A stretch of 64,000 nt of DNA from Ditylenchus dipsaci (Eukaryota; Nematoda; Chromadorea; Rhabditida; Anguinidae), in the NCBI GenBank assembly GCA_004194705.1, contig SADC01001377.1, positions 124,001 through 188,000 on the forward strand, given 5' to 3'. Of the stretch, positions 8,634 to 45,793 are shown in pieces. The translations under genes were made by a program, and so were the position numbers. The notes under the pieces are model-generated. The model was not told the origin of the DNA and did not search any database. It was given only the letters and a program-made list of their open reading frames with translations. The stretch's first letter is position 1. Every line of letters begins with the position of its first letter.

Positions 8634-8687
8634 TAGAAGAATACAGTGAAACATTGATGTAACACAGCCGTAGGGTTTCAGAATGAG

Positions 8688-10690
8688 GGTAAAATATCAA
8701 CTGGCAACCAATTTAACTGGCAACTATCAACTGGCAACCAATTCAACTGGCAGCTATCAACGGGGTATAGACGTTTGGCTACAAATGTAACATTTTTGGC
8801 GTTCTGCCCTATGTTCTGTTTTAGCCACTTAGGCCTACTTAGGCTTAGGCCTTAGGCTTAGGCTTAGGGACCAAAAAAATGTCTTACGAACTACAAAATG
8901 GCTGAAAAAATAAGCCTAAGTGGCTCAAACAGAACATAGGGCAGAACGCCAAAAATGTTACATTTGTAGCCAAACGTCTACTCACCCTATCAACTGGCAA
9001 CCAATTCAACTGGCATCTATCAACTGGCAACCAATTCAACTGGCAACTATCAACTGGCGACCAATTTAACTGGCATCTACCAACTGGCAACCTTTTTAAA
9101 TTTTATTAAAAGGGGGTTGCAAATCATAATGGCCCTGTTTATAGTCGGGGTCAACTTTTTCTTAAATTCGAAAAATGTCAATATTTATCGTTGTATTTCT
9201 TTATTTTGATGTTTATGACCCTAGGGCAACTTTTTGAGCTCTACACGAAAATATAGGCAGTTTTTCCGAGTGATTTATAAAAATTTGACGCAGAAAAATC
9301 GGTGGGTAAAAAAAGTTGAGGGGTCAACTGGGGTCAACTTAGGGTCAACTTTTGTCAAAATTTTGTAGAGACAAGATGTCAAATTTTTGTTAAAGCCATC
9401 TTGTAGAGCTCAAAAAGTTGAGTGGGGGTCATAAATATCAGATTTGGCATTTTCTCATCAAAAAATTATTATTTTAGCACTTTTGTAAAAAGTTGACCCC
9501 TAAAAAGTTGAGGGGTCAACTCGACTATAAACACTGCCAATGCGAATATTTTGAACTCTCAGGTTCAAATCCCCCTGGGTGAATACCCTTTTTAATGAAT
9601 AGCCTTTTAATTTACAAGTTTGTATTCAAAATGATCCTCATACTCTTGGCTATCTAACAAAATAATCAGATCGTGATTTCAAAATTCCTGTAACTGGTTT
9701 GCAGGCTAAGACCTGCTAAATTTACAAAATTCGTTCGTTCGGGGGTTTTTCTTTGACTGGTTTGATTTATGTTTTCCTACTTTTTTCTACAACTCACGCG
9801 TACCAAAATGTAGCTAAGATTCTAGGCTCTCATTTGAGCTATCAAACAGTGAAAAAATTATCATAAAGTTAAAACTAGGACTTAAAAAGGTTGGACGATG
9901 TCCACTTCCATGCTATTCTACCCTGGACTATGCCATAACTTTTTGGTATTATTTTGAAAGTGACGTTTTTTGGAATATTGATTTATATGATCATTTACAA
10001 CCTTATACTCAAAAGGTAGCCCTGCTTCCTACCGGCATTTCCAGCATACGGTTGTATAAAGCATGTAAATTAAATTTGCAAAAAATGTCAGTTTCGAAAT
10101 AATACCAAAATCTTACAATCAAAAGTACTCATGTCTTCCTTGGTCAAACCTTCACTAGCTACCTAAGTTTTTCTGCAAAGATTTTGGTGTGAAAATATTC
10201 TTAGCTGATTCCTCATGAAATTGTGACTCCAGAAAGTTACTAAACGCGTCTAAAAAACAAAATGGGTAAAGGTTTAGGCAATATAAAGCTAAGTGAGCAT
10301 CATTTTGGCTGATTCCCTTTCATTTTGATAGTCATTTGCTTGAAATCGCAAAATTTGGGGAGTAATTGACAGCAAATTAGTGCTGGAAATGATTACAATC
10401 GATTAGTCAATAGTTTTTGGCCCTAATTGTTAATGAACTTGATAAAATGTACGGTAAAAAATAGGTTATGCATCCGCTGGGAATCGAAGCTGAGAGATCG
10501 AAATATTCGCATTATGATTTGCAACCCTCCTTTAATAACATTGAAAAATGTTGCCAGTTCATAGATGCCACTTAAATTGGTTGCCAGTTGGTAGTTGCCA
10601 GTTGAATTGGTTGCCAGTTGATTGTTGCCAGCTGAATTGGTTGCCAGTTGATAGTTGCCAGTTGAATTGGTTGCCAGTCGATGGTCGTTC
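8688..10690. mobile_element. Array-TIR element F5 with 9-bp target duplication
   Basis: The unit CAACTGGCAACCAATT is repeated at 8697-8765 and 8995-9090 and, inverted, at 10548-10683. The element is bracketed by a perfect 9-bp repeat, CAGAATGAG (8679-8687 and 10691-10699). The tips are GGTAAAATATCAACTGG and GAACGACCATCGACTGG. Two fold-backs are nested inside: one tipped GGTATAGACGTTTGG (8776-8990, flanks TATCAACGG/TATCAACTG) and one tipped GTTTATAGTCG (9128-9531). A tRNA-like B box (GGTTCAAATCC) lies at about 9562. The core 9600-10480 has no recognisable gene. Confidence 0.85.
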
Positions 10691-11251
10691 CAGAATGAGT
10701 TGTGTGAGATTGAGTTGTGTGAGGCTGTTGCTTGTGTGTTTGACGTAATAAAGAAATTAGGGTTCTTTTGCATTATCGGGACCTCCAATATTTTTGAAAA
10801 AAAATGGATGTTAATCATGGTAATTATAGTGATCTTTTAATCACAATCACCATCATCACCGTAATCAACATCTAAAGCGTAATATTTTTTAGAACATTTT
10901 ACGGGCATTCAATTTTAGGTCATATATTGCTGCAGAACACGTAAAAGGAGGTCCCATAATGGAAAAGAACCGAATATTGAGTCGAAAATACCATTAGTGC
11001 TGCATATCCCTGAGTTGTGTGAGGTCGTAATAAAGAAATTAGTTTTTTTTTGCTTTTTGGTGCTTCTGGTATCTGCTCTTCCCGGTGTGAATATAGTCGA
11101 CCTGTGTGTGATTATTGATTTAGTCACTAATCGTGACTAATTGGTCTTACGGAAACAGAAAAGATATCTCCGCGGCAATTGTATTGCCAACCACAAGGTT
11201 CGTGTAATATAATCTCTATTTTTTCAAATTTTTATTTTGCCTTCTGATTTT

Positions 11252-12461
11252 GGGCAAAGCTTTTCCTTGCTGCTAAAAGACTTCTTTTTGCTCCCAAAGG
11301 ACTTTTTTTTGCTGCTAATTTTGTCTGCTGCAAAAAGACTTTTTTTTGCTCCAAGAAGACTTTTTTTGCTGCAAAAAGACTTTTCGTGCTGCAAAAAGAC
11401 TTTTTTTGCTGCTAAAATACTTTTTTTGCTGCTAAAATACTTTTTTTGCTGCAAATATTGTTTTGCTTCACATGCCTTCTCCGCAGCATTTTTCACTAGA
11501 AATATCAATTATTATACATATTTGCGGTCAATTTGTCCACAAAATTTTTATTATTTCCTAGGAACGAATAAACCATGCTATACAACCCAAAATTGTGTGC
11601 TGAAAACAGTTTGTTGAGACCGAAATTCTGTTTTGACTAACTAGAATCTCAATACTCTGGGTTATTCATGAAAAAAACAGTACCCACTTTAAGGTAGTCG
11701 CGACATATGCACTTGGACGGGGGGGGCGCACTTTATATTGATTTGAGAAAAGTGTTTAAACATCTGCTAAGTAACTTTTTTACGCTCAGAATGATTCAAA
11801 GCTATTTTCTGACACCTTCCTAAATGAAAAAATCAATTTTTTGGAAAAAAATTCAACCAAAATTTAAGTTTTTATTTAATTTTGCCCCTGAAATGCATAA
11901 ATACCAGGTAGTCGACCTTAAAATTAAGGGAATCATTCAGACTGAGGATGTATATAATTATATCATGCCTAGAGCAGTGCCTTGAGTGATTTAGTGTGTA
12001 TAAATTTAGTGTGTATGAAAAGTCGGTTTTTGCCGCGAAATTTTTAGGCGGTACTCAAGTTGTTCAGCCGGACCCCACCTGGAGAATAAGGAACTACCTA
12101 GGCTTCGAAAGTGTGATTAATTGATGTGTGGACGAATTGACGTGTGGACGAATTGGAGAATGCACGAATTGACTGTGGACGCATTGATTGTAGACAAATT
12201 GACCGCAAAATATGTATAATAATTGATATTTCTAGTGAAAAATGCTGCGAAGAAGGCATGTGAAGCAAAACAATATTTGCAGCAAAAAAAGTATTTTAGC
12301 AGCAAAAAAAAAGTATTTTAGCAGCAAAAAAAAGTCTTTTCGCAGCAAAAAAAGTCTTTTTGGCGCAAAAAAAAGTCTTTTTGCAGCAAAAAAATTAGCA
12401 GCAAAAAAAAGTCCTTTGGGAGCAAAAAGAAGTCTTTTTGCAGCAAGGAAAAGCTTTGCCC
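11252..12461. mobile_element. Array-TIR element F6 (GCAGCAAAAAAAGTCTTTT unit)
   Basis: About nine units (TTTTTTTGCTGCAAAAAGAC) at 11264-11460 are matched inverted at 12272-12450. Beyond the arrays, about 75 bp of unique inverted repeat continues inward (11465-11535 versus 12185-12270). Tip GGGCAAAGCTTTTCC at both ends. Flanks TCTGATTTT (11243-11251) and TTTGATTTT (12462-12470) agree at 8 of 9 bases. The Lys/Ser-rich ORFs here are translations of the array, not genes. Confidence 0.8.
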
Positions 12462-12842
12462 TTTGATTTTAATTAAAGCTTTTTTCCGATAACTTGAAAT
12501 CATATGGCATGGTAAAAGCACCCCTTGGGACCGGGCTAAGGTGTATTATATCAAGGACTATTGCGTCCTACTTTCGAAAATAATTTTTACTTAGGATTTC
12601 TTCGTACCTCATTAAGCTGAAAATTATCCGCCCTACTTCCGAAAACTGGCGATGGTCACCTTTATCAAGGTTGGCCTCATATTAAGGGCGAGATTTCTTT
12701 AATTTTGTATAATACATGACTTAATTCATTAGATTCGAGGCACTTTCATATCGATCATCCAATTGTATCGAGATGCAATTATATCGATAGTAAATTTCTT
12801 TGAGAAAAAAAATTCTACAAGTAAATTCTTTTGAATCAAATC

Positions 12843-14013
12843 CAGTGTTGTTCCGGCGCCGGCGCTAGCGCCGGCGCCGGCGCTGCCCCGGGAAAAAACA
12901 GCGCCGGCGCTGGGCCATTGAAAAATTTGGTCGGCGCCAGCGCTGGCGCCGGCGCTAAAAATTTTCGTCCCGGCGCTGGCCCCGGCGCTGTTTTTGAACG
13001 ATTATGCGCCGGCGCTGTTTCTAAAATTCAACAGCCTAAAATTGAGAAAAACAATTATTCTTAATTTTAAACTAAATTATCAGAACTTTTTTGCTGCAAT
13101 TTCTTTCGTTTCTTTAAATATTTTATTTATTTTCTTTAATTTTTTAGTTTATTTTTGTAACATAACCAGGGTATCATATGCTATTGTTGAAAAAGTAATT
13201 CACACAACTTTTATTTTCACAAGACTAATATGGATTACCCATTTCTTTCATGAATTTCCCTTTCTCTAATAACTTCACCTATATGGACTTATTTCTCAGC
13301 ATAACAAAAATACAGGGTGTTGCGAGAAGTCCACAGGATTTTAAATGGTTATTATTTGTTTTCGAGACCGAATTCCTAATTTCTGTTTCCTTCAACCATT
13401 TTCTCTTGACGGGCAATTCATTTGGTGTATAATGTCAAAAAAAACGGTTTTCGCTTGGTCCCTTTGTGGTCCTGGTCTGTGGGTGGCTCCTAGATGGCTT
13501 AAACCCGAAACAAAAGGGGGACCAAGCGAAAATCATACTTTTGACATTATACATTTAACGAAATTGCCCGTCAAGAGTAAACGATTAGTGAAAACAGAAA
13601 TTCGTTCTAGAAAAAGGTTATAGCCACCTCAAATTCTGCGGATTTTTTAAAACACCCTGTATTTCAAAATTCACTCATCATGAGGAACTAATAGAGCAAA
13701 TATAAACGGTATGCTGCTAATCGATATAGATAGCAAATAATAATTATCACTTTCACTGTAAAAAACATACTGTTGAAAAAAATAGGAATTTTTCATGAAA
13801 TTTACAGCAAAAGCAAAATTAAAAGCCGGCGCCGGCGTCGGCGCTGCCATGAACGCCGGCGCTGGCGCCGGCGCTGGGAATTTTTCAAAAGAGGTCGGCG
13901 CTGGCGCCGGAGCCAAAATTTTCAAGGGAGGCGCTCGGCGCTGGCGCTGGGGCCTTTTCTCTGAAAGGGTCGGCGCCGGCGCTGGCGCCGATCCCGGCGC
14001 TGGAACAACACTG
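12843..14013. mobile_element. hAT-type element with GGCGCTGGCGCC arrays
   Basis: Tips CAGTGTTGTTCCGGCGCC and inverted CAGTGTTGTTCCAGCGCC, with a perfect 8-bp target duplication ATCAAATC (12835-12842, 14014-14021). Both ends carry GC-rich arrays of GGCGCC/GGCGCT units, in sharp contrast to the AT-rich surroundings. The 8-bp duplication and CAGTG tip fit hAT. The Gly/Ala-rich ORFs are array translations. A Tc1-type MITE is nested at 13313-13659. Confidence 0.85.
13313..13659. mobile_element. Tc1/mariner-type MITE (CAGGGTGTT ends)
   Basis: CAGGGTGTTGCGAGAAGTCC at the left and its imperfect inverted copy ending AACACCCTG at the right, flanked by TA (13311-13312, 13660-13661). The interior is a palindrome around 'GGTCCCTTTGTGGTCC'. 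Inserted in the GC-rich hAT-type element. Confidence 0.75.
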
Positions 14014-14515: not shown

Positions 14516-17500
14516 TCATATCTTTGACTTGACCAATTCCTTTAACACTCCTTCTAATTGTAGAGCCTTAGCCATATTCCCTCGGATAGTCAGCTTTTTA
14601 GCCATGAACGCTTGAGTGGGGAAAATTTTCCATTAAACATGTCAACAAAGTCACCCAGTTCCATTTCGAATTGGACATCAGATCCTGGGGAATATTTTCC
14701 TCTCTGTACAGATCCATTGTCATTTTTTAGATCGATGTACAAATCAATGTTCTCTAGGTTGTCTAAATATTAAAAAATAATGAGCAGTCAAGATATGAAA
14801 CCAGAAAAAAACAACCTTTCAGAGCAAATTCATACACTGCACTAATGCTCTTGACATTGCTGGGACTAATGCCTTTCATAATCTGTGCCATAAGTGAGTC
14901 CAACTCAGACGACTTCATTGCCTTGCGACTCTTGGATCTATCTTTGTCCATCTTCACTAAAGAGTTGTAATCCACACCAGGAAGGAAGAAGTCGGGCATC
15001 AGAGGGGCGCCTGAAAATTGATGAGTTTTCTTTTAAGAACACACAAATCCGTTAAAATCTGACCTGGTTGGACAGCATACTGATCAAAATCAGTTACTCC
15101 CTCACTTTTGAGAATATCTTCATCGATGGCAAAGTTTCCAGTATATTGTTTGCTGTTTTTACTCTGAAAAAGTTCCCTTGTTTCTAGGACTCAGCAACTT
15201 TATAATTCTGGCTTAAGAAACAACCACTGGAGAGTTTACTCAAGCATATAATCGAAAAAATTTCTTAGCGCAACTTCACGCTTTCAATTAAATTGCAGAA
15301 ATACTAAAAAATCAATCTATTGAATAGTCGAACGCTTTTTACTAGGCTTGGCAGTTAGGGGTCCGGCGGGAAACGGGAATGGGAATTTGAAAAAAATTGC
15401 TCCTGCGGGAAACGGGAATGGGAATTCCAAAATTTCGGGAATCCCGACGGGAAACGGGAATTTGTAAAATAAGAGAGAAAATCCAAAATTCTGTGATTTT
15501 TTCTTCAAACAAATCAAAACAAACAAATCAATAAAGTCTATTCAGACTTCCCGAAGTCACGCTTGACTCCGGAGTCAAATCGATGACTCCGGAGTCAGCA
15601 TGAGTTCGGAGTCAACCCATTTTGGTCATGCAAAACTACTGTAATCATTTGTTTTGCATTTTTTCATCTTGTTTTCGATCGGGATCCTATTTTTTGAAAA
15701 AATATACTGTGACAGATGTCACAGGAGAAAAGTTATAGTATGTAGAGAGTGATCTTTAATTTTAAAAACCTTCACCGGAACAAACAAGTGGTACTGTCTT
15801 GGTTTTAGAAATGAAAAAAAGCTTGTGCTTACAGTAAGTAGATTCTTAAATTCTCAGCCGTTATGCTGTTGAAGAGGCTCTAGGTAAATTCGTCCCCAAA
15901 ACCGCTAATTCAAAAATTTCGAACAGGTTCGAAATTCGAATCCAATCGGTAGGAAACACAATTTTTTCTTGTTAAAGAGCCATATAGTCTTAGTAAAGCC
16001 GAATGTGGGTAGGAAGAGCATCAGGTAGGTACGGGCGGCGGTAAATTCAGATGTGCTAAAGAGGGTTTGACAGTAGTAAACACCGTTTTCTCGAGTATTT
16101 TTTTGAGTTTTGGTAAAATCGAGATTTGGTAAAATCAATTATTGCCCAATACTCAAGAAATACCATACAAAACCTTCTTTTACTATTATCAAACCATCTT
16201 CAGCATGCCCGAATCAGTCCAAAAAACAGATTTTGGAACATGAAAAATGTAAAAAATTTTTTGCTCCAAGTGGACAACCACTTGGTTTGTTGTACCCAGG
16301 TAGTCGTACCCAGATTGGGGAACTTAGTTAGTGTAGTGGTACACAGGTAGCAACATTTCGGTCTGTGATCCAAGCTATGATTTTTATATGATTTCTACGA
16401 TTCTTACGATCCAACGTCAGTTTTGCTGAATAATCCATGCACCAACAAAACCAAGTAGTCGTTCACTTGGAGTAAAAAATTTTCTACGTTTTTCATCTTA
16501 CAAAACATATTTTCTGGACTAATTCAGGCATGCTGAAGATGGTTTGATAGTGATGAAATGCCGTTTCGTCGAGTATTTTTTGAGTATTGGACAATAATTG
16601 ATTTTACCAAAACTGGTTTTTATCAAAGCTCAAGAAATACCCTACAAAACGGCATTTTAGCACTATCAAACCATCTTCAGCGTGTCCGAATTAGTCCATA
16701 AAATAGGTTTTAAGGTTAAAAAGTAAAAAAAATTAAAATATGTATTGTCTGTTCACCTGACCATGAGGGACCTACTCAAGGTATTGTGGTTGAGGTGGGT
16801 AAAGTCGTAATTTTGGTCCTAACAAACCTGATTTCCCACACAATTCTAAGTTAGAAAAATATTTGCTACTACCAGGATTCGAACCTGCTCGAAATTTTTG
16901 AATTAGCGGTTTTAGGGACGAATTTACCTGGGGACGAATTTACCGGGGACGAATTTACCGTCGCCCGTTGAAGAAGACGTTCCACCAGAAATGACAAGCA
17001 AAATTGCTTAGGATCAAACTTTTTTCGTTTTGACATTAAATAAATTTGAATTTGGATTTCGGGAAAATTTCGGGATTTTTGAAAGTGAACGGGCGGGAAA
17101 CGGGATTTTGAACTTTGAGCCGGTGGGAAACGGGAACGGGAAAGTGATTATTTTCGGGATTCCCAAACCGGGATTCCCGTGGGATTCCCGTCCCGCTACC
17201 AAGCCTACTTTTTACGTCACTGGCACTGATTTTTTGGATGTAATGTTCTACGAGTCTTAGCACTGACGTCCGACGCTAATTTTCGAAAAGCTACGGCGAT
17301 GTTTTTAGTGCTTTTTGGGTGTGGAATTTTCGGAATTTAGTCAAATGCGAATGTCTCGAATGCGAAACGGCCTTTTTCCTAAAAGCAATATTGCTGTCTG
17401 ACAATCCTTTTGAAAAGCGAAATTTTTCAGTTGGCACTGCATAGATGTTAGGATTCGATTGTTATTCTTTTCGACACTGAAAATAGCTCCTTCACTGCCT

Positions 17501-20176
17501 GATATTTAAAAAAATCTTTTCATTCTCGGGGTTTTCTTATCGCTTTCAATTTTTTTGACCAGCGCGTAGCCCAGGAATTCAGCTTTCTAACAAGCCATTA
17601 ATTGAATAAATGAGGTTTCAAAAAGTGACAATTTTTTTGATAAAATTAAACTTTTTTTATTCAGAAAGTGTTTAGAAATGTTTCTCGTACCTTGTCGTGC
17701 AGAAAAAATGAGTTTGGGGGTGATTTTGGGTCACTTTTCAAAAAATCCGAGTATGGGGGATCTAAAGAAGTGCCGACATGTCTTGATAATTACCATCACA
17801 TACCAGCATAGCATATGCAGCATCAGCAACGATTGATGGTTTCCTACAAGCTTCTTTGTTATGCTCTAAAAATTGTATCTTGTTTTGAACGGTTTCAGTC
17901 AATTCAATATGACCTCCGATCATCATCTCCATAGCCGAAGTCCATACACCCGTTTTCGGCCTTAAATATATATGGGAGTTTTTGTTTACGAGGTGAATAG
18001 CACGGGCGACGGTGAATTCATCCTCAACCAATTCATCCTCGGTGAATTCATCCTCGGTGAATTCATCCTCTAGCGAATTCATCCTCCGGTGAATTCATCC
18101 TCGGTGAATTCATCCTCCTTTTGTCTTGACAGGAAATATAGTTGTTATAATTTTTAAACTTAGGTGAAAGGGTTTTGTTCACCCCAAATGGTCCCAAACC
18201 ATCCGAAGCCACCCCAAACCACTCAAAACCACCTTAAACACCCCGAATGGTCTTAAACCATCCAAAACCAACTCAAACCTCTTAAAACAACCTCAAACCA
18301 GCTAAAGTGAATTTAACGCCATAAAATGGCTTTGAATCACACAAGTGCGGCCTTAATCACTTAAAACCCGATTTTAGCATACCAAAAATTTTATGCTTAA
18401 AATTGTTTGATAATACCAAATAATACCAACCACTCAATTTACGAACATTTACCAACCGAACCAAGTGGTCGTCCACTTGGATGAATTTTTTTTACGTTTT
18501 CGCGTCTCGAAACATTTTTTTCACTAGCAACCTCTACATCACCCCTGAGAATCCATGCACCAAACCAAGTGGTCGACCACTTGGATCAAAAAATTTTTAC
18601 GTTTTCGGGTTCCAAATTAATTTTTTGCGCTAATTCGAGCATGCTGAAGATGGTTTGACAGAGGTAAAATTACAGTTTATGAATAAATTTTTGAGTTATT
18701 GGTAATTCTTGATTTATCAAAATCAATCGTTAGCGATAAATCGAAAATTTCTTGATAAAACGTGATTTTACCACTGTCAAACCATCTTCAGCATGCTCTA
18801 ATTAGTGCAGAAATTTTTTTTGGAACTCTAAAAAGTAAAAAAAAATTTGAACCAAGTGGTCGACCACCTGGTTTACGACCACTTGTATAAATTGGGGAGG
18901 GGTTGCTGTCACCGAGGTTACTTGTTCGAGTCCCACTAAGTGTAAACATTTTTTTGCTTACATTTTTAGGCTATCCAGGTGGACACCCACCTGACTAGGA
19001 GTTATATACCAAGGAATTTTGGTTAGGGTGGGCAATTCTTAGGCCCTTGTTTGGTCCCGACATCAATAAGGGTGCTCTCTGAGGGTGCCCCACAAAATGA
19101 GGGTGCTCTCTTAATATATAAAAATCAGGTCTTTAACATATTCTGCCCAGGACAAAAAGGAGGATGAATTCACCGAGGATGAATTAGTTAGAGGATGAAT
19201 TCACCGGAGGATGAATTCACCGAGGATGAATTCACCGAGGATGAATTAGTTAGAGGATGAATTCACCGGAGGATGAATTCACCGAGGATGAATTCACCGA
19301 GGATGAATTGGTTGAGGATGAATTCACCTAGAGCGAATAGCACCTCACCAAAGAGCATTAACAGCAATGTTCATAGGGCGGAGTTCCTCGTGCATTCCTA
19401 ACACGCACATCGACATTCCATACTTGGCCATAGTGTAAGCGAAAATATTATCGGTGATTTCGAATCACACAGTAAAATATTTAAGTGACTCACCAACATG
19501 ATGAGCAAACCACTGAGACTCCATAACCAGAGGTGGACTTAGATTGAGAATGTGCGGGTTCTTCGCTTGCTTCAAGTAGGGAATGCACTTTTGGGACCTG
19601 GAAGAATAACTTTGGTGATAATAATCTTGAATTAAACTTAAAAAGCTTACATCATAAATGTCCCACGGGCGTTCACACCATTCATCAGGTCATATCGCTT
19701 CATAGGAGTCTTCAATAATTAACCTTAAAAATTATGCATAAAGACTAAAAATGAGCTAACCTCCATTGTTCCAGTTAAAGAAATGGCGCTAGCATTGTTT
19801 ATGAGGATATCAATGCCACCTACAATGGACTACCAAAACAAAGGGAATAAAAGTTTAATAAAATTATTACCAAATTTCTTGACTGCCGCCTCAACTGCCT
19901 CAGTGACAGATTGCTCTTCACGGATATCAACCATGCATGGTAGAGCTTTCCCTCCGCCTAATTATGTGAGGGGTCAGAAAATTGGACTGACCATAAGTAA
20001 TAACCTTCTCGACTTCCTCGGCAGCCGTATAAATAGTTCCAGGAAGTTTGGCATGAGCCGTGGTTGTCTTGGCACAAATCACGATGTTGGCTCCATCTTT
20101 GGCAAGCTTCAATGCAATTTCTTTGCCAATGCCTCTGGAGGCACCTGAGATCACCACAGTCTTGAGCTTGAATTTT
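14516..20176 (-). CDS. HSDL2: HSDL2: hydroxysteroid dehydrogenase-like protein 2 (SDR + SCP2)
   Basis: Peroxisomal/mitochondrial short-chain dehydrogenase with a C-terminal sterol-carrier (SCP2) domain. Exons on minus: 20176-20005, 19957-19871, 19819-19761, 19709-19651, 19597-19494, 19439-19349, 17960-17804, 15163-15064, 15010-14816, 14762-14516. Visible motifs: GASRGIG (NAD(P) loop), NNAS, active-site YTMAK (YxxxK), then TGNFAIDEDIL and an SCP2 domain with VDMFNGKFSP. These exons encode about 423 codons against 418 in human, so only the short N-terminal exon is missing; it should lie upstream, perhaps beyond the transposons. The C-terminus is SKI, a weak PTS1-like tripeptide. Three places need one extra base: exon 20005/19957 phase, the acceptor TTTTCG before 19439 (expected TTTTCAG), and a C4 run at about 14611 that otherwise truncates SCP2. 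Introns are about 50 nt except the two that carry transposons. Confidence 0.93.
15343..17207. mobile_element. hAT-type non-autonomous element in HSDL2 intron
   Basis: Tips TAGGCTTGGCAG and inverted CTACCAAGCCTA, with perfect 8-bp target duplication CTTTTTAC (15335-15342, 17208-17215). Subterminal units of GCGGGAAACGGGAATGGGAA occur in both arms. It carries the nested element F8 (15877-16966). No transposase. Confidence 0.88.
15877..16966. mobile_element. Array-TIR element F8 (GGTAAATTCGTCCCC), 9-bp duplication
   Basis: Left tip GCTCTAGGTAAATTCGTCCC, right tip (inverted) GGGCGACGGTAAATTCGTCC. Flanks GTTGAAGAG (15868-15876) and GTTGAAGAA (16967-16975) agree at 8 of 9. Inside the arms sits an inverted tRNA-like B box, GGTTCGAATCC (minus strand, about 16876). 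The core has three copies of a 'CCATCTTCAGCATGC' hairpin module (16195, 16530, 16672), also found in F9. Confidence 0.85.
18004..19334. mobile_element. Array-TIR element F9 (GGTGAATTCATCCTC), 9-bp duplication, in HSDL2 intron
   Basis: Left tip GGGCGACGGTGAATTCATCC, right tip (inverted) GCTCTAGGTGAATTCATCC. Perfect 9-bp target duplication GAATAGCAC (17995-18003, 19335-19343). Arrays at 18010-18112 and 19161-19330. The core repeats CCAAGTGGTCGACCACTTGG hairpins and the CCATCTTCAGCATGC module shared with F8, and an AGCAACCTCTACATCACCCC segment (18533) shared with the fold-back at 41090. No ORF of note. Confidence 0.9.
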
Positions 20177-20761
20177 CTGAAATATAAAAATCAAATTTAT
20201 AATTAAAATTTTGAAAATATGTTTTCTTTTTTACTGAGCAGTTTTTGTGGGAACAACTATGGTAGTTTGAGATCTTGCTAATATGAAGACGTCTTTAAAA
20301 AATTTAAAAAAAAACGCTAAAAATGACTGCCCTGCGATCGGATACAAATTGTGATCGGATACAGCGATCGGATACAATTGCGATCGGATACAGCGATTAG
20401 ATACAACTGCGATCGGATACAGCGATCGGATAAAAAATTAAAAAATATATTTGTTCTACATCCCAGCTTACGACTAGATTTATCCAGCGATGAAAACAAT
20501 GAAACAATTAAGAGTAACGGGAAGAAACGACAATAATTTATAACTGGACCAACAAACAAAAAGAAAACATTCAATATAGGTTAATAAATATAGGTTAATA
20601 ATATTAGCCGGGTCTTCTAGGATATTACTTTCCACAACTTCAGGATTTCCGGCAGTGCCTCTACATTTGATTCAAATTCAACATGAGCCATCTAATAAAT
20701 GAGAACAATTTCATGGAAATCATATTAAAATACGAACAAAAGAAGCAACAAAAAAATGAGC

Positions 20762-20999
20762 TTAAAGGGCTATTGCCGTCTCCGACAACGGTTGTCCCCG
20801 CCAATTCAAATTTTTTCTGAATCATTGAACTTCTGTACTGATTTTTCAACTTGGTTTCTATCACAACTATACCTAAAATTAAATTCTAAGCCTTGTTTTG
20901 TTAGAAACCAAGATAAAAAATCCGTGCAGAAGTTGAATGATTAGGCAAAAAAATTTGAATTGGCGGGGACAATTCAAAACAGGTGGCAATGGCCCTTTA
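20762..20999. mobile_element. TTAA-flanked palindromic MITE (piggyBac-like)
   Basis: TTAAAGGGCTATTGCCGTC at the left and its inverted copy GGCAATGGCCCTTTAA at the right. The body is a long palindrome around 'CCCCGCCAATTCAAA'. A second copy is nested in the pogo-type MITE at 23933-24174. The TTAA edges suggest piggyBac mobilisation; this is inference. Confidence 0.7.
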
Positions 21000-21071
21000 A
21001 GCACGTTCGCAATGAGTGTCGACCTGAGTGTGAGATTTGGGGTGTTTTTAACGCGGGAAGAGCTGTACTTT

Positions 21072-21249
21072 TGTTGTATCGCCCGTTCGAATCTCTTATT
21101 GTCTTGACACGACTACGATTCGTTGTCAGGCCTTTGTGCTCCCGCTGTTGTTATATAATTATTGTTGTGCTTGTAGAATAAAGCTGCCGTTAATTTCCGC
21201 TCTCCGCTCTCGCTCTCTCTGCTCTCTATCCGCCCTTCCAAGTACAACA
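21072..21249 (+). repeat. 5' LTR
   Basis: 178 bp, TGTTGTATC...AGTACAACA. Contains AATAAA at about 21177 as a candidate poly(A) signal. It differs from the 3' LTR by a handful of small indels. Confidence 0.92.
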
Positions 21250-21250
21250 T

Positions 21251-21262
21251 TGGCGCAGTCGC
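21251..21262 (+). promoter_or_regulatory. Primer-binding site
   Basis: TGGCGCAGTCGC begins 2 bp after the 5' LTR. It matches the complement of an animal tRNA-Ser 3' end (…CGACTGCGCCA) over 11 bases, as in the 17.6/297 group of Ty3-like elements (from general knowledge). Confidence 0.75.
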
Positions 21263-21264
21263 TA

Positions 21265-22720
21265 TGGATGTAAAAGAACTTAAAGCTCTGGTGGAAATTC
21301 AGCAAGCCTCAATCGCTCAGCAATCAGCTCAAATGGCTCAAATGTGGCTCTTCTTCAGCAAAACCGTGGTGTGGTGACAATGCACAGCCTGCTCCTCCTG
21401 CTGTCTCAACGTTGCCTCAATTGCCGGACATGGAAATCTTCTCAGCTGATGACAGTGATCCAAGCAAGTTCGAAGACTGGATTGCCCGCTTCAAATTCTC
21501 TCTCGACTGCACAGCTCCGAATATGGTGGATCCCTGCAAGGTGAAGCTCCTCATGACCAAGCTCTCGTCTGAAGCCTTCTCTGAGTACCGCAAAAGCTGC
21601 CTGCCAAGAGATGTTGTGGACTTCAATCTGGACGAAACAGTAAGTGGCCTTTCTAAATTATTTGCTCATTCTCGCTCGCTGTGGTGGATCGCTTCGAATG
21701 CCTCCGTCTGCTGAAAGAAGAAGGAGAGGAATTCCGCCACTACGTCAATCGTCTCAAAGGTCAGCTCCGTCTATTCAAGTTCAGCTCTCTCAAAGAGGAG
21801 AATTTAACTGCCTTCTCCTGCTGCTGGGTCTCAAGTCAAACCAAGATGCTGCTCTCCGAACTCGCCTTCTTCATCGAATCAACGAAAAGGAGAGGCCGTC
21901 AAGTTCGAAGAAGTTGTGGAAGAAGCTGCTGCCTATCTGTCCACAATTGCTGAAGCCAAACATCTGGAAAGAAAGCCCGATTCCTTCGCCATCAATGCCA
22001 TCGCCTTCCAAAGAGAGCGTCAACAACAATTTTCGCCGAAAACCGTGCTCCGCCGCCGTCTGCTGCTACCGCTGTGATCAAATGCATTGGTCCAAAGATT
22101 GTCCGCACGTCAATCACCGCTGCTCCAAGTGCAATAAGCCTGGACATCTGGAACGCCAGTGCCGCCGCTACCAAAACTGCCAGCCAAATGCCGCTAAGAA
22201 GAAGTTCCAGCCTCAGCGCCGAATCAATCTCGTCCAGCTGCCATCTATAATGCTCAATCAAGTCAGTTCCGCTATGCCTTTGCTATCCGCTTCCGTGATG
22301 GTGAATGGGACTGCTATCGACTTCATCCTGGATTCAGGGGCCCAAGTCAATACAATGAATGAGTCTGCTATCGCTGCCGTGGGTCAAATCAAGATAGCTC
22401 CAACTCAGTTCCGTGGTTGCCTGCCGGATGGTTCCAAGTGCAAATTCCTGGGGGAAAGCAATGCTCTCTTCCAAGCCAATGAAGTCTCATCCGTGCAAAG
22501 CTTTGTGGTGGTCAAATCAGGATGTCCTAATCTGCTTGACTGCCTGCGCTCTATGCTCTCAAGTTCATCTCAAAGCGCCTGGACTCTCTGCTGCCTACCG
22601 ATGGTTCTGCTGCTACCTCAAGTGCTGTGGAAATGTTCCAAATTTCCGAAGTTCCTGCTGCCAAAAAACAATGTCCTGATTGGTGCTCTCCAAATCTGCC
22701 AAGACGTTGCCAAATCTCCT
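21265..22720 (+). pseudogene. Decayed gag-protease of the LTR element
   Basis: The start MDVKELKALVEIQQ is 15 bp after the LTR. Gag continues in three alternating frames (segments at 21265-21375, 21412-21670, 21681-21830 and 21900-22060), so several 1-nt shifts have accumulated or been introduced. Near 22070-22180 there are two CCHC knuckles: CYRCDQMHWSKDCP and CSKCNKPGHLERQC. They are followed at 22290-22470 by a retropepsin motif, FILDSGAQVNTM, and a conserved LLD tail. Downstream (22700-23490) are degenerate Ser/Ala/Pro-rich repeats with no RT. Confidence 0.85.
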
Positions 22721-23495
22721 GCCGCTGCTACTATGTCGCCTGGACATACGCCAAATTCAGCCTCTTTTGCCGCTGCCGTGACGTCTCCCGGATGTCTGCT
22801 GGATTCCGCCGCTTCCGCCGCTAAGATACCTTGCAAAGATCTGCTGAAATCCGCTGCTCCTTCCCCGCTAAGATGCTCGCAAACATCTCCGAAAATCCGA
22901 TGCTCCTTCCGCTGCCAAGGTGCCTGCCGAACTTCTACCAAATCTGCTGCTGCTGTCAAGATGTCGCCGAAACATCCGCTGAATACTGCTGCTTCCGATG
23001 CTACTGCTACTCCTGCCGCTGCTATGGTGCCAATTAAGCCTCTGCTCCGAAATTGTCCAAGCCTCAGGAAACAAATCGCCTGGATTCCGCTGGACCGCAA
23101 AATGGTATCAATCTCTCTCTCAAAGATGAAGGGAAGGAAATGGACACGCCACTCAAGGATTCTTGCTGTGCCTCCGTAATGTCCTCAATGCGCCTTCCTG
23201 ATGTCCGAATTCCTGATGAATGCCGAATCACTGCTGAATACCTCTGGGATCTGTGCCTCATGGATGGACATGCCTTTGTCTACATGTGCTGCTCTGCCTT
23301 GTCTGTCTGCTGCCCTCTCAACTGCTGGCTGCCTTTCTATTGGAAGCTTTCCAAATTCCGCCCAAGTCCAAATCTGCTGCCGCTCTTCTCTCAGTACCTG
23401 TGCTGCTTTGGATGCTGTGGTGGTGGACTCTCCGTGCTCAACAAGGATTCAAAAAGATTGGACTCCAGCACCTCTCCCGCTAGACTCTTTTGACC

Positions 23496-23504
23496 GAGGG
23501 AAGG
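23496..23504 (+). promoter_or_regulatory. Polypurine tract
   Basis: GAGGGAAGG lies directly before the 3' LTR, where plus-strand priming is expected. Confidence 0.8.
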
Positions 23505-23683
23505 TGTTGTATCGCCCGTCGAATCTCTTATTGTCTTGACACGACTACGATTCGTTGTCAGGGCCTTTGTTGCTCCGCTGTGTGTTAATAATTATTGTTG
23601 TGCTTGTAGAATAAAGCTGCCGTTAATTTCCGCTCTCCGCTCTCGCTCTCTCTGCTCTCTATCCGCCCTTCCAAGTTACAACA
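23505..23683 (+). repeat. 3' LTR
   Basis: 179 bp, aligned end to end with the 5' LTR. It ends CCAAGTTACAACA before the target duplication ACTTT. Confidence 0.92.
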
Positions 23684-23872
23684 ACTTTTCTTTCTTGACC
23701 AAAACTTTTTTTTCTGTTGATGTCGACACTCACGCTTGGGTCGACACTTTTATGTGAACGTACCTTTAAAAAGAGAGCTCACGTAAATGCAAACAAATAA
23801 TATGAGAGCTTTTTGATTAAGGAAAATCGAGTAAAAAAAGAGTTGTGATACAAAATTAATTACAGTCGACTC

Positions 23873-24280
23873 TCTCGTTAACAAACCCGAAGGGACCGGA
23901 CGTATTACTTCGTTGACGAGAGAGTTCGTTAAAGGGCCTGGCCTCTTCCTACTCGGTGGTCCCCCGCCAATTCAAAAATTTTCCCTTGATCATTGGACTT
24001 CTGTACGATTTTTCCGCTAGATTTCTAACAAAACTAAGCCTAAAATTTGATTTCAGGCCTAGTTTTGTTAGAAACGTGGCGGAAAAATCCGTACAGAAGT
24101 CCAATGATCGAGAGAAAATTTTTGAATTGGCGGGGACCACCGAGTAGGAAGAGGTCAGGCCCTTTAACAAAGAGTTCGTTAACGACCAAACCAACCAAGC
24201 TAAACCAAAAAGTCTTGACCGAAAGTTCGTTAACGAGAGTAATTTGCTAACGAGAGATTCGTTAACGAGAGAGTCAACTG
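23873..24280. mobile_element. pogo-type MITE with CGTTAACGAGAGA array and nested TTAA MITE
   Basis: CAGTCGACTCTCTCGTTAAC and its inverted copy, flanked by TA (23871-23872, 24281-24282). The right arm repeats TTCGTTAACGAGAGA. The palindrome TTAAAGGGCCTGG...CAGGCCCTTTAA (23933-24174) is nested inside. Confidence 0.85.
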
Positions 24281-24399
24281 TAATCGCTGTATCCGATCGT
24301 TGTTCCGATCGCAGTTGTATCTAATCGCTGTATCCGATCGCAATTGTATCCGATCGCTGTATCCGATCACAATTTGTATCCGATCGCTGTTATACCCTA

Positions 24400-32018: not shown

Positions 32019-33131
32019 TAGAGTTGCTGAATGGATAATTATCCGGACAATTATCCGGATAATTATCGGATAATTATCCGGCTAATTATTCATAATTAGC
32101 CGACTATATAAAATATGGCTAATTATAATTCGGTTGTTCGGAATTAACTAGTTGGGGTAATATTTAAAAATTAACGCAAATATGTGAAAAATGACCGCAA
32201 ATTTCTGAAAAATGACCACGAATCTCACATTACCGCAAATTTCTAAAAATTGACCGCAAATTTCTGAAAAATGACTGCAAATTTCTGACTTGCCTTGTAG
32301 GACCAAGGCATATTTTCATGGGATCACAGGTTAAAATTTTTCTCTCAGCAAACACTTTTTTCTTGAAAAATAGCCTTGAAATGATCTTAAAGGGGTCAGT
32401 AAAACTCAGGGTGGCTATATACACCGGTATACAGACTATTCGTTACAAAAACTGATTCGTTACACCGATTCGTTACATTGACGATTCGTTACAGAAAAAA
32501 TATTTTTTGACCAAAAATCGACTTTTTGCCTTGGAGGACCAAGGTAAACCACCTTATATTATGAGCAATCAAAGGGTCAGCCCTTGGCCCGGACCATGTA
32601 CCCCCAAAGGGGCTTCCTATTGAATTAGGGTGCCTGCCGAAGGCAGGCAGGTAAAAGAATACCTTTTTAATGAATAAAAAAGGTATCCAGGTGGTTTACC
32701 TTGGTCCCCAAGTCAAAAAGTCGATTTTTGGTCAAAAAAATATTTTTTCTGTAACGAATCGGTGTAACGAATCAGTTTTTGTAACGATTCGGTTGGCAGT
32801 CATATATACCAACAGGAAGCCAATCAGAAATTCGCGGTCAATTTTTAGAAATTTGTGGTTAATTTTCAGAAATTTGCGGTCATTTTTTAGAAATTTGAAG
32901 TTAAATTTGCGATTAAATACCACCCAAATAGTTACTCAAAATGTTATTGTTCTGATATGGGAACTTCGACTCGTTGTTATGTTTTTCCAAAATCATGTAT
33001 AAATTCAAGGATTTATGCAATTTTTGATCAATTACCGATATAAAATCATAATTAACCGGTTTTGGCTAATTATGGATAATTATCCGGATAATTATCCGAT
33101 TTTTAATTACCCGGCTAATTAAGCAACTCTA
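32019..33131. mobile_element. hAT-type non-autonomous element, copy 1
   Basis: Tips TAGAGTTGCTGAATGG and inverted TAGAGTTGCTTAATTAGCC. Perfect 8-bp target duplication GCCGGTTT (32011-32018, 33132-33139). Arms carry arrays of GGATAATTATCC units. It holds a nested 9-bp-TSD element (32426-32801). The target duplication shows cut-and-paste insertion; no transposase is inside. Confidence 0.9.
32426..32801. mobile_element. Array-TIR element F12 (GATTCGTTACA), copy a
   Basis: Tip GGTATACAGACTATTCGTTA. Arrays of GATTCGTTACA at the left and TGTAACGAATC at the right. Flanks ATATACACC (32417-32425) and ATATATACC (32802-32810) agree at 8 of 9. Core includes GCCTGCCGAAGGCAGGCAGG (32631-32650). Confidence 0.82.
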
Positions 33132-37188: not shown

Positions 37189-37634
37189 GGTATACAGACT
37201 ATTCGTTACAAAAACTGATTCGTTACACCGATTCGTTACATTGACGATTCGTTACACCGATTCGTTACATTGACGATTCGTTACACCGATTCGTTACAGA
37301 AAAAATATTTTTTTGACCAAAAATCGACTTTTTGACTTGGGGACCAAGGTAAACCACCTGGATACCTTTTTTATTCATTAAAAAGGTATTCTTTTACCTG
37401 CCTGCCTTCGGCAGGCACCCTAATTCAATAGGAAGCCCCTTTGGGGTACATGGTCCGGGCCAAAGGCTGACCCTTTGATTGCTCATAATATAAGGTGGTT
37501 TACCTTGGTCCCCAAGTCAAAAAGTCGATTTTTGGTCAAAAAAATATTTTTTCTGTAACGAATCGGTGTAACGAATCGTCAATGTAACGAATCGGTGTAA
37601 CGAATCAGTTTTTGTAACGATTCGGTTGGCAGTC
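37189..37634. mobile_element. Array-TIR element F12, copy b
   Basis: Same tips and array as 32426-32801 and a perfect 9-bp duplication ATATACACC (37180-37188, 37635-37643). It has two more GATTCGTTACA units per arm, and its core lies in the opposite orientation to copy a. Confidence 0.88.
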
Positions 37635-39859: not shown

Positions 39860-40701
39860 GGGATCAGGACGTTTGAGTCCCGGGCCGTTTGGGTCCCACG
39901 GCCGTTTGTGTCCCGGCCGTTTGTGTCCCGGCCGTTTGAGTCCCGGCCGTTTGGGTCCCAGGCCGTTTGGGTCCCAGGCAGTTTGGGTCCCAGGCAGTTT
40001 GGGTCCCAGGCCGTTTTACTCCCCAGCCGAGCAATCAATGCTCCCCAGCATTGATCCCGCATTTGGGCCCCCGCATTTGGGCCCCGCATTTAGGCCCCAA
40101 TTATAAAATTTTATATTTTTCAACGCAGATGTGTTGTACGTATTAGAACTGGTGCTGCACCAAGAAAAAGCTATGTGGGTCATCAAAGGGTCAGCCATTA
40201 TCCCGTACCATGTACCCCCAAAGGGTTAGCCCTTATCCCGGACCATGTACCCTCAAAGGGCTTCCTATTGAATTAGGTTGCCTGCCGAAGGCAGGCAGGT
40301 AGAAAATCTAGAAAAGTCAAAATTTTCGATGGATTGTATGCGGAGGGGCCCAAACGCGTAGTAACCGGAAGTAGACCGTAAAGGCTGAACGGTAGCTTGC
40401 CGTTGATTTTCTTCATCGCTTGAATAGTCACTGAGGCCATTTACAATTCTTCGGGCCAGTTCTGTAGCAGCATCCAACATCAGATCTCTAGATAAATATC
40501 AGTTTAATTCACGAAACAATTTCTTTTAACAAAACAAAAACATTTTTTGGAAATGAATAATAGTTGTGCGGGGACTCAAACGGCCTGGGACCCAAACGGC
40601 CGGGACTCAAACGGCCGGGACACAAACGGCCGGGACACAAACGGCCGGGACACAAACGGCCGTGGGACCCAAACGGCCCGGGACTCAAACGTCGCGGACC
40701 C
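39860..40701. mobile_element. Array-TIR element F14 (GGCCGTTTGTGTCCC)
   Basis: About nine units of GGCCGTTTGGGTCCCA at 39866-40020 face inverted units at 40570-40695. Tips GGGATCAGGACGTTTGAG and inverted GGGTCCGCGACGTTTGAG. Target duplication TATTCTAG (39852-39859, 40702-40709), 8 bp (8 of 9 if extended). The core (40165-40300) includes the GCCTGCCGAAGGCAGGC module shared with F12, followed by a coding-looking minus segment (40330-40480). Confidence 0.82.
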
Positions 40702-42225: not shown

Positions 42226-42227
42226 AT

Positions 42228-43760: not shown

Positions 43761-43797
43761 TATTTTATATCCAATATATTTTTTTACAATACGACCG

Positions 43798-43871
43798 CTT
43801 TTCGGTCAATTGCTGTCAATTGACCGGTCAATTGACCGATTTTTATTTGACCGGTCAATTGTACAACTCTA
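43798..43871 (-). mobile_element. hAT terminal repeat with AATTGACCGG array
   Basis: Read on minus: TAGAGTTGTACAATTGACCG, then four further units of AATTGACCGGTC. The tip matches the TAGAGTTG tips of the hAT-type elements at 32019 and 36550, and the array sits immediately upstream of the transposase. The opposite end is not visible. Confidence 0.7.
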
Positions 43872-43899
43872 GTACTGTTGCAGAAACTTTGGCGCAACC

Positions 43900-44750
43900 A
43901 AGATTGCGCCATTTCAAACTAGGTCAATTTAAATTGGGCAAAAATCAAATTGGGCCAAATTCAAATTGGGTCACATTTTGACTGCGCAAAAAAGAATTTT
44001 CGCTCCTGAATATTATGAGTTTAATGATTCCAATGAATCCAATTGCAAATTTAAGACAGTTGTTGACTGAAAAAGCAATCCCGGAAATTTTTCCAATCGC
44101 TTCGTCGATATTTTTTTTAGCATGAATTCAGCTCAATTGCTGAAAAACTGCGAACAAAATTAAGTTCACACCCAGAGAGATTCGAACCAGAAAGCTGAGA
44201 AAGTGGTTTGATTTATTTAAACGATTTCCATGCCGGACCAGATACGGACAAGAGATACACTCCCCTTTAAGTACAAACACCACTTTTGAAAAGAATGACA
44301 TAATCGTTTCTTTTTATCGAAAATCTTAGATTTTGAATGAATAAATAAGAAAGCTTACACTTATCTGAAAGAGGAGATTCAGGAGATCCTTTTGACATTT
44401 AAGGTGTGAACAAGTTATTGCTACATAATTGAGATAAATTCAAAAGAAACAAAAAACATAGTTTTATGATACTCTGAAATATGCTCTATTTTCAATACGG
44501 TATATTGACCCCTCAGACACTTTTTCTCGGAGAAAAAGTGATATTCGTGTTCAGGTTGAATTCTTCACCGGAATATACCGACCTGCCGATCGGTCTCGGG
44601 AGTGTTAAATGAGTCTTATTGGGCACGCAAATGCAATTTAGAAAAATCGCACTATATTTATATTTTTAAAAATATGTACTCGAAAATGTGTGCAAGTTGT
44701 CACAAAAATTTTATTTGAAAAATTGTCAAGGTAACTTTTTGGCTTATCGG
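43900..44750. other. No gene; CAAATTGGGC repeats
   Basis: Four units of TCAAATTGGGCAAAAA-like sequence at 43918-43990, a B-box-like GGTTCGAATCTC on minus at about 44170, and an isolated ACGGTATATTGACCCC MITE-like end at 44497. Confidence 0.35.
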
Positions 44751-44765
44751 TTTCCACAGAAAAAT

Positions 44766-45793
44766 CGGCACTATTCCATTGTACCCCCCCCAAAAAGCTA
44801 TTCCAGTGTAACCACCCCCCCCCCCCCCAAAATAATGACCTATTCCATTGTACCCCCCCCCCCCAAAAACCGACTTTTTTATATGCACTCAAAAACCATT
44901 TTTATGTAATAATTTTGGGGTATAGACGTTTCGCAAAAATTTCAGAATTGAAATTTTTGCGAAACGTTTCGCAAAAATTTCAGTTTGGTATTTTTTTTGT
45001 TCTCGCGGGTTCAATTCCGCCAATAGTGTTTTCATTTTTTCTACGGCCAGTTCGCGACCCTTTTTCAATAAGTTATTAAGTTATTTCAACAAGTTATTAA
45101 ATTCAATAAGTTATCTTATAGCAACTTCACTGTTTAGTCAAACCAAAGCATACAATTTATTTCAACATAACGGACAAACAAAGCATAACAAATTCAACAC
45201 AAGCACAAACAAAGGATCAATCCTGAGCTATCCCCGGGATCCCCTGACCTATCCCCTGAGACGGTACTATATGTAGAAGTATGTGAGCCCTTGGGACGGT
45301 CATGTCAACTCCGGGACATCCTTTTTTAAGCAGCGTATAGCCGTTAGGCTTAGGACACCCGTCCTGGTCTAACCAGTATTTTTTTATCCCCTCAGGTATC
45401 TCCTCCATCCCCATGTATCTTAGATTCTGGGTGTGTCCCCTGACCTATCCCCTAAGATCTTCTGAGCTATACCCTGAGATTAGAAATATAAAACTGAAAT
45501 TTTTGCGAAACGTTTCGCAAAAATTTCAATTCTGAAATTTTTGCGAAACGTCTATGCACCATAATTTTGCCATAAGAAGGCCAGAACAGCCATTTAAATA
45601 GGGTTCAAGGGCTGTATTGGGAGGGAAGGGACAAAACAGGGGCCACTAATAAATAAGGATTTAAGGCACCCTCAAACCAGCAACTTGGGGTCCACCACTT
45701 AATATATACGTTTGAAGGCACGTCAAACCCAGCAACTTGTGGAGGACTGGAATAGCTTTTTGGGGGGGGGGGGGTACAATGGAATAGCGGCGA
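44766..45793. mobile_element. Array-TIR element F17 (CTATTCCATTGTACCCCC)
   Basis: Three units separated by poly-C tracts at 44766-44880 (CACTATTCCATTGTACCCCC) and inverted units at 45733-45793. AAAAAT sits outside both ends, but a full duplication is not clear. F18 is inserted inside. Confidence 0.65.
44918..45560. mobile_element. Array-TIR element F18 (TTTCGCAAAAATTTC), perfect 9-bp duplication
   Basis: Tips GGGTATAGACGTTTCGC and inverted GGTGCATAGACGTTTCGC. Target duplication ATAATTTTG is perfect (44909-44917, 45561-45569). Nested in F17. The core has GGGATCCCCTGACCTATCCC-type repeats and a minus ORF of 65 codons with no known family. The tip matches the fold-back nested in F5 (GGTATAGACGTTTGG). 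Confidence 0.9.

What the first reader, a model, noticed from the sequence alone, without database searches (positions are those of the whole stretch)
8679..45569. A super-group of elements with tandem-array inverted ends, related tips and 9-bp target duplications (FoldBack/MULE-like)
At least six independent elements share one architecture but not one sequence. Their inverted ends are built from short tandem units, each family with its own unit, bounded by a 9-bp target duplication. Duplications: CAGAATGAG (8688-10690, perfect), TYTGATTTT (11252-12461, 8/9), GTTGAAGAR (15877-16966, 8/9), GAATAGCAC (18004-19334, perfect), ATATACACC (37189-37634, perfect; 32426-32801, 8/9), ATAATTTTG (44918-45560, perfect). 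Tips are variations on GGGCGACGGT, GCTCTAGGT and GGGTATAGACG. Drosophila FoldBack elements combine tandem-repeat TIRs with 9-bp duplications, and Mutator-like transposases make 9-bp duplications. I infer one mobilising activity acting on many divergent array families, possibly undescribed in this lineage.
Basis: partly seen in the sequence, partly recalled or inferred. Interest (0 to 1): 0.9.

Follow-up and report, generated by a model that had tools for sequence, protein, structure and literature searches.

The report
Array-ended Mutator transposons in a nematode
The window holds about ten insertions of several families of cut-and-paste "jumping" DNA elements whose two ends are mostly built from family-specific stacks of short repeats, and the same nematode genome carries Mutator-type enzymes between such stacks, so the kind of element is known but its diversity here is striking.

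Summary
Eleven copies (ten independent insertions) lie in or at the edge of the window; the genome fits the plant-parasitic nematode Ditylenchus dipsaci. Target duplications are 8 or 9 bp, not uniformly 9: mainly 9 for the 18004, 37189 and 11252 families, mixed for 8688, 8 for 44917 and nested 8762. Empty sites prove one insertion event.

In 21 of 30 best MULE transposase loci the domain lies between an inverted array pair, against 21 of 400 random window points. Three window families share arrays with MULE-bearing elements.

"One mobilising activity" is not supported: 29 loci give 17 transposase clusters with many different array units. Array and transposase divergence correlate weakly (rho 0.24, p 0.01). 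The outermost bases usually differ between an element's two ends.

The plan is published: Tm1 of Meloidogyne (PMC3169594) and Muta families of Aedes (PMC5225508). Verdict: new members of a known kind, and a rich natural series for testing whether the arrays are transposase binding sites.

The parts
1..1676 (.). Array-ended element (starts 12 bases before the window, at C1342:123988); tips GGGCGGC / GGCTCTA, unit GGTAAATTGAACCTGA; duplication GTCTATAAC 9/9 (right copy 1677-1685); holds at 906-1025 (-) a 40-residue remnant 75% identical to the N-terminal stretch of L059
8688..10690 (.). Array-ended element; tips GGTAAAA / GAACGAC, unit TCAACTGGCAACCAAT type; duplication CAGAATGAG 9/9
8762..8986 (.). 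Small element nested in the left array of 8688; tips GGGGTATAGACG / GGTGAGTAGACG; 8-bp duplication CTATCAAC
11252..12461 (.). Array-ended element with equal tips GGGCAAAGC; 20-bp unit; duplication 8/9 here, 9/9 in 4 of 6 other copies read
15876..16966 (.). Array-ended element; tips GGCTCTA / GGGCGAC, unit GGTAAATTCGTCCCC; 8-bp duplication GTTGAAGA
18004..19334 (.). Array-ended element; tips GGGCGAC / GCTCTA (GGCTCTA in most other copies), unit GGTGAATTCATCCTC; duplication GAATAGCAC 9/9; 98% identical over the first 336 bases to MULE-bearing L059
20325..24396 (.). Array-ended element; tips GACTGCC / GGTATAA, unit GATCGGATACA; 8-bp duplication CTAAAAAT; interior has reading frames that look like retrotransposon gag/protease (by eye)
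32426..32801 (.). Same insertion as 37189, in a second copy of its host repeat (tips GGTATAC / GACTGCC); duplication 8/9
37189..37634 (.). Array-ended element; tips GGTATAC / GACTGCC, unit CGATTCGTTACA; duplication ATATACACC 9/9; empty sites at C867 (two) and C32
39860..40701 (.). Array-ended element; tips GGGATCAGG / GGGTCCGCG, unit CAGGCCGTTTGGGTCC; 8-bp duplication TATTCTAG; ends 92-97% identical to MULE-bearing L033
44917..45560 (.). Palindrome-ended element, tips GGGGTATAGACG / GGTGCATAGACG; 8-bp duplication ATAATTTT

Best explanation
These are non-autonomous or decayed members of many coexisting families of cut-and-paste DNA transposons of the Mutator superfamily, of the FLYWCH-MULE (Phantom/Tm1-like) sort, in Ditylenchus dipsaci. 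Transposase lineages broadly carry their own inverted tandem arrays of a 14-20 bp unit. The most likely mechanism: the transposase binds the array units (inferred), cuts just outside a short G-rich tip, and inserts with an 8- or 9-bp stagger (shown from duplications and empty sites). In most families the outermost bases (about 5-8) differ between the two ends, so the ends are distinguishable; I infer that this favours pairing of two unlike ends. Units are alike at both ends of an element and turn over fast between families, in step with the transposase (weak correlation shown, cause inferred). Short copies such as 18004 and 39860 are moved by the enzyme of a full-length relative with the same arrays (inferred from shared ends).
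For: 115 PF10551 matches in the genome, 114 marked over the cut-off. Of the 30 best loci, 30 have an array of period 13-20 (243 of 400 random window points also do) and 21 an inverted pair around the domain (21 of 400). FLYWCH over the Pfam cut-off in 7 of 12 N-terminal stretches scanned, weaker in 2, none in 3; 28 of 31 loci match one of five in-genome N-terminal queries, one of them only itself. L059: 4166-bp element with the 18004 tips and arrays, GTTTCTCTC 9/9, MULE fragment. C1105: 37189 arrays 3.8 kb apart with MULE similarity between them (best E 1e-12). 39860 shares ends with L033. Of 21 MULE-bearing elements, 14 exact 8-9 bp duplications and 1 at 8/9; mismatched flanks 1 of 420. Empty sites with a single ATATACACC at three loci. 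Transposase versus array distance rho 0.24, p 0.010, n 17; reverse-complement control -0.13.
Against: No MULE partner shown for 8688, 11252, 44917, 8762, 20325 or 15876. 9 of 30 MULE loci have no array pair by the criterion (some run off the 3.2-kb stretch). The L059 MULE fragment is just below the Pfam cut-off (26.2 against 27.6) and its frames are broken. 4 of 21 MULE-bearing elements show no duplication and 2 only 7 bp. Clusters and units do not map one to one: L010 and L019 share a unit, and L025 and L027 share a cluster but differ in unit. The correlation is weak and shared descent alone could give it; FLYWCH versus array is weaker still (rho 0.19, p 0.046). FLYWCH is not supported by Pfam in L037, L038 or L059. 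Binding was not tested.
Confidence: 0.9

Rival explanations
1. One single transposase moves all these families.
For: Shared GGG tips, and the 7-mers GGGCGAC (GGGCGGC)/GGCTCTA on three different arrays in this window, make cross-mobilisation inside such a tip group possible.
Against: 17 transposase clusters among 29 loci with many different array units; duplication length differs by family.
Confidence: 0.07
2. The 44917 and nested 8762 families belong to another superfamily (such as hAT or Merlin, by recall) with 8-bp duplications, unrelated to the MULE group.
For: Exact 8-bp duplications in 8 of 10 (44917) and 4 of 6 (8762) other copies; no MULE partner; 44917 lacks a true array.
Against: Tips GGGGTATAGACGTTT resemble MULE-bearing tips GGGTACGCGACGTTT (L029) and GGGTATACGACATTT (L027); 8 of 21 MULE-bearing elements also have exact 8-bp duplications.
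Confidence: 0.3
3. The inverted arrays are satellites or assembly artefacts, and the direct repeats are chance.
For: The window is very rich in tandem repeats (106 rows; 243 of 400 random points have an array nearby).
Against: Empty sites, dispersed copies with unrelated flanks and edge-exact duplications.
Confidence: 0.01

Closest known systems
Tm1, Mutator/Foldback family of root-knot nematodes (PMC3169594; abstract, sections 5, 6, 9, part 1 of section 11 and passages read)
   Same: 8-10 bp, mostly 9-bp duplications; asymmetric 7-bp outer motifs outside the inverted repeat; tandem units most often 14 bp; FLYWCH-MULE (Phantom-type) transposase in a 2.6-kb element; MITE-like derivatives; host in the same infraorder, Tylenchomorpha
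   Different: Different tip and unit sequences; Tm1 is one family with a single transposase-coding element in the M. incognita and M. javanica isolates examined, here many families; Tm1's motif B (GGA) is not seen here and motif D was not looked for
Muta MULE families of Aedes aegypti (PMC5225508; abstract, section 11 and passages read)
   Same: 14 families in one genome; 8- or 9-bp duplications, both made by one transposase in yeast; 10 of 12 long-TIR families with 9-15 bp subterminal tandem repeats; FLYWCH in 13 of 14; Muta1 called a type 2 Foldback element
   Different: Muta1 has a palindromic terminal motif; no asymmetric tips are mentioned in what I read; host is a mosquito
Phantom (Marquez and Pritham 2010; not held; seen only through PMC3169594, PMC6446971 and PMC3688188)
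   Same: FLYWCH-MULE, 8-10 bp duplications, some with FoldBack-like or sub-terminal inverted repeats
   Different: Not compared directly
Drosophila FoldBack (FB) and Galileo (PMC3688188; abstract and sections 11, 13 read)
   Same: Inverted ends made of tandem repeats; in Galileo the transposase THAP domain binds sites inside the ends
   Different: Galileo has a P-element-type transposase; the FB partner protein was not compared here

Membership tests
Mutator superfamily (MULE) | MULE DDE transposase between the ends | tested here: met
   18004 (L059, MULE just under cut-off), 39860 (L033) and 37189 (C1105) families. Not shown for 8688, 11252, 44917, 8762, 20325, 15876
Mutator superfamily (MULE) | 8-11 bp target duplication | tested here: met
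   8 or 9 bp; single-copy empty site
Phantom / Tm1 | N-terminal FLYWCH plus MULE | tested here: met
   FLYWCH over cut-off in L009, L019, L020, L024, L029, L031, L033; below it in L011, L013; none in L037, L038, L059
Phantom / Tm1 | transposase groups with Phantom or Tm1-A in a tree | not tested
   reference sequences not held; named hits of one frame are MULE proteins of Ditylenchus, Galendromus, Diachasmimorpha, aphids and a few others
Tm1 | asymmetric 7-bp outer motifs outside the inverted repeat | tested here: met
   18004, 15876, first element, 37189, 20325, 8688; not met in 11252
Tm1 | Tm1's own motif sequences (A1 CGGTTAA, A2 CCTACCC, B GGA, C CGATTCAGTATCCGC) | tested here: not met
   tips and units differ, so Tm1-like, not Tm1; motif D not tested
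Drosophila FoldBack (FB) | tandem-repeat inverted ends and 9-bp duplication | tested here: inconclusive
   array ends met, but duplications are 8 or 9
Drosophila FoldBack (FB) | NOF-type partner protein | not tested
   no NOF sequence compared
Rehavkus | PHD finger in the transposase | tested here: inconclusive
   no PHD match in the 18 partial reading frames scanned

The most novel reading that the evidence does not exclude
The arrays are a fast-evolving address code: each FLYWCH-MULE lineage and its array unit co-diverge, with concerted homogenisation of both ends, so that one genome accumulates a series of mutually orthogonal transposition systems, while heterotypic outer tips (a GGGT-type with a GGGA-type end in 9 of 13 array families of MULE-bearing elements, grouped by eye) enforce pairing of unlike ends.
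Probability: 0.35. Interest if true: 0.65.

Novelty: new member of a known kind. Interest (0 to 1): 0.42.

Why it matters
A 2013 paper on Galileo states that, for FoldBack and Phantom elements, whether the tandem repeats act as transposase binding sites is untested (PMC3688188, section 13). This genome offers, in one host, a natural series of diverged MULE transposases with different repeat units, so the question can be asked with matched and mismatched pairs. It also warns repeat annotators that the two tips of such elements often differ, so searches that require equal terminal inverted repeats may miss or mis-bound them.

Tried and rejected
Rejected: the 32426 element as independent evidence (same insertion as 37189). 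Rejected: the ninth base of the 44918 duplication. Rejected: a single mobilising enzyme. A first Mantel run used hand-chosen units and a wrong frame for L059; it was replaced by the automated run. A Peptidase_C48 (Ulp1) reading of a second frame in L059 has no Pfam support (E 0.18 in an L027 stretch), so it is only noted. A test whether the C1105 interior is a MULE was weak on the first 1 kb and positive with the adjoining stretch. No non-MULE transposon control was run, so I cannot say that arrays are specific to MULEs in this genome; the window itself has an array-bearing repeat with CAGTC-like edges (see noticed). Tips of the MULE-bearing elements were delimited by eye from GGG plus the duplication, so the GGG rule is partly circular; the mismatched-flank control covers the duplications only. 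An early literature search assumed a springtail host and is not used. Structure prediction was not used.
Full report
WHERE. The window is C1342:124001-188000 of an assembly of 226,978,389 bases in 1359 contigs. Two UniRef proteins labelled Ditylenchus dipsaci match MULE loci of this genome at 100% over 98 and 74 residues (P0002 in L024, P0004 in L014), with lower identity elsewhere along them. The published D. dipsaci assembly has 227,234,012 bases, 1394 scaffolds and 37.5% GC (PMC6929663, whole text). I take the host to be D. dipsaci.

OBSERVATION. Edges and duplications were recomputed. One mismatch in nine: 11252-12461 and 32426-32801. Exact 8-mers: 8762-8986 (nested in the left array of 8688), 15876-16966, 20325-24396, 39860-40701, 44917-45560. 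The 32426 and 37189 elements lie at the same place in two copies of one host repeat, so they count once: eleven copies, ten insertions.

COPIES ELSEWHERE (readings were made by eye on the printed ends). 18004 family: of 20 loci fetched, 15 show both ends, one of them through the longer stretch L059. 12 have a 9-bp and 3 an 8-bp exact duplication; in 5 no right end was found. Two of the 12 (L054, L056) share their flanks, and the window copy is one of the 12. 37189 family: 10 pairs of ends read: 7 exact 9-bp, 1 exact 8-bp, 1 agreeing over the 7 letters visible, 1 without a right end. 8688 family: among 30 loci I read both ends of 4 other copies: 1 exact 9-bp, 2 at 8/9, 1 exact 8-bp. 11252 family: 6 pairs: 4 exact 9-bp, 1 off by one inserted base, 1 in a T run. 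44917 family: 10 pairs: 8 exact 8-bp (two of them with the same flanks, on C31), 2 at 7 of 8. Nested 8762 family: 7 loci, 6 printed: 4 exact 8-bp, 1 exact 7-bp, 1 degraded.

EMPTY SITE. A query made of the two flanks of the 32426 insertion with one copy of the 9-mer matches C867 (two places) and C32 over all 356 positions at 98-99%. The letters at the junction read GCTATATACACCAACAGG in all three, with a single ATATACACC. This shows insertion with duplication of nine bases.

TRANSPOSASE. PF10551 gives 115 matches in the genome. The 30 best were fetched (3.2 kb each), not chosen for arrays. All 30 have a tandem array of period 13-20 and at least 40 bases; in 21 an inverted pair flanks the domain. 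Of 400 random window points, 243 have such an array and 21 a flanking pair. The other 9 loci include some where the element runs off the stretch. Units differ by family (for example CGTTTGATCGAAAAC, CCGTTTGTGTCTAAA, GACATTTCTTTCCCG, CAGGCCGTTTGGGTCC). In 21 MULE-bearing elements with both ends (20 of the 30 loci, plus L059), duplications are exact 9-bp in 6, 8/9 in 1, exact 8-bp in 8, 7-bp in 2 and absent in 4. Mismatched flanks reach 8 or more in 1 of 420 pairs, namely L015/L014, which share a left flank. Pfam FLYWCH is over its cut-off in 7 of 12 N-terminal stretches scanned (L009, L019, L020, L024, L029, L031, L033), below it in L011 and L013, absent in L037, L038 and L059; MULE is over cut-off in L019 and L029 frames and just under it in L059 (26.2 against 27.6 bits). 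By tblastn with five in-genome N-terminal queries, 28 of 31 loci match at least one; the L059 query found only itself. Homologues of the L019 frame are MULE proteins of Ditylenchus, Galendromus, Diachasmimorpha, aphids and a few others (32 proteins).

LINKS TO THE WINDOW. 18004 matches L059 at 98% over its first 336 bases and 95-100% over its right array; L059 is a 4166-bp element with the same tips and GTTTCTCTC 9/9. 39860 matches L033 at 92% over 318 and 97% over 141 bases at its ends; L022 and L023 are similar. The 37189 arrays, and at one end its tip, recur 3.8 kb apart on C1105, and between them lies MULE-like coding sequence (best tblastn E 1e-12). The first element holds a 40-residue remnant 75% identical to L059's N-terminal stretch. 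No partner was shown for 8688, 11252, 44917, 8762, 20325 or 15876.

TWO DIFFERENT ENDS. GGGCGAC/GGCTCTA, GGTATAC/GACTGCC and GGTAAAA/GAACGAC are the unlike outer motifs of one element each. The pair GGGCGAC (or GGGCGGC)/GGCTCTA occurs on three different arrays in this window. In the 20 MULE-bearing loci with GGG tips, 16 pair a GGGT with a GGGA end, L029 pairs GGGT with GGGC, L025 GGGT with GGGG, and L013 and L038 have two GGGT ends; by array family that is 9 of 13 (grouped by eye). 11252 has equal tips. L011 and L036 are colinear at 89% over 2394 bases yet carry the two tips at opposite ends. I infer exchange or inversion relative to the tips.

ARRAY AND ENZYME. Among 17 transposase clusters (29 loci with a usable array), transposase distance and array distance correlate (rho 0.24, p 0.010; 0.33, p 0.006 without L016, L017, L059; reverse-complement control -0.13), and in 11 of 17 the nearest transposase and nearest array are the same family. 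Clusters and units do not map one to one: L010 and L019 share a unit; L027 falls in the cluster of L025 but has another unit. On 14 hand-picked families FLYWCH-region against array gives rho 0.19 (p 0.046) and MULE against array 0.24 (p 0.019). Left and right arrays of one element are alike (median 0.80 of 1 over 11 elements, range 0.35-0.95), whereas arrays of different families are near background (median 0.08, maximum 0.79). Common descent alone could produce the correlation; it does not show binding.

WHAT IT IS. Cut-and-paste transposons of the Mutator superfamily, FLYWCH-MULE sort. The same plan is printed for Tm1 of Meloidogyne, with asymmetric 7-bp outer motifs, mostly 14-bp tandem units, 8-10 bp duplications and a FLYWCH-MULE transposase (PMC3169594); Meloidogyne and Ditylenchus share the infraorder Tylenchomorpha. 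It is also printed for 14 Aedes families with 8-9 bp duplications, 10 of 12 long-TIR families with subterminal tandem repeats, and one transposase giving both 8 and 9 bp in yeast (PMC5225508). The tip and unit sequences are not those of Tm1, so I file these as Tm1-like, not as Tm1. No report on such elements in Ditylenchus appeared in the listings, which cover open-licence papers only. Binding inside the ends by the transposase's THAP domain is shown for Galileo and stated as untested for FoldBack and Phantom as of 2013 (PMC3688188).

LIMITS. No other superfamily was tested for arrays. Many transposase copies are broken; no activity is claimed.

Noticed in passing
window 8120-8634 and 2336-3277: Two other inverted repeats with ACAGTCAACTCTCG / ACAGTCAAACCTCG edges, the first with arrays of a TATAATATACACTCGC unit; they look like a different superfamily (pogo/mariner-like by recall), so array ends may not be confined to MULEs.
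   Followed up: no
window 20325-24396: A 511-aa frame at 21644-23179 with CCHC-like and aspartic-protease-like stretches (by eye), flanked by near-identical repeats around 21080 and 23510: an LTR retrotransposon inside an array-ended element.
   Followed up: no
L012 and L015 (contig C1343), L014 (C48): L015 has the left flank of L014's insertion site and a right flank like L012's left flank: looks like recombination between copies of one family.
   Followed up: no
L059:2526-2984, L026, L027, L035: A second reading frame of L059 has similar stretches in three MULE loci (35-48% over 28-63 aa) and a faint Peptidase_C48 (Ulp1) look, below any cut-off.
   Followed up: partly
window 12847-14010: Element with very GC-rich GCCGGCGCTGG-type inverted ends (seen by eye); superfamily not determined.
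   Followed up: no
window 14520-20000: Exons that look like an HSDL2-type gene (by recall, not searched); 18004 would lie just inside a splice donor in one of its introns.
   Followed up: no
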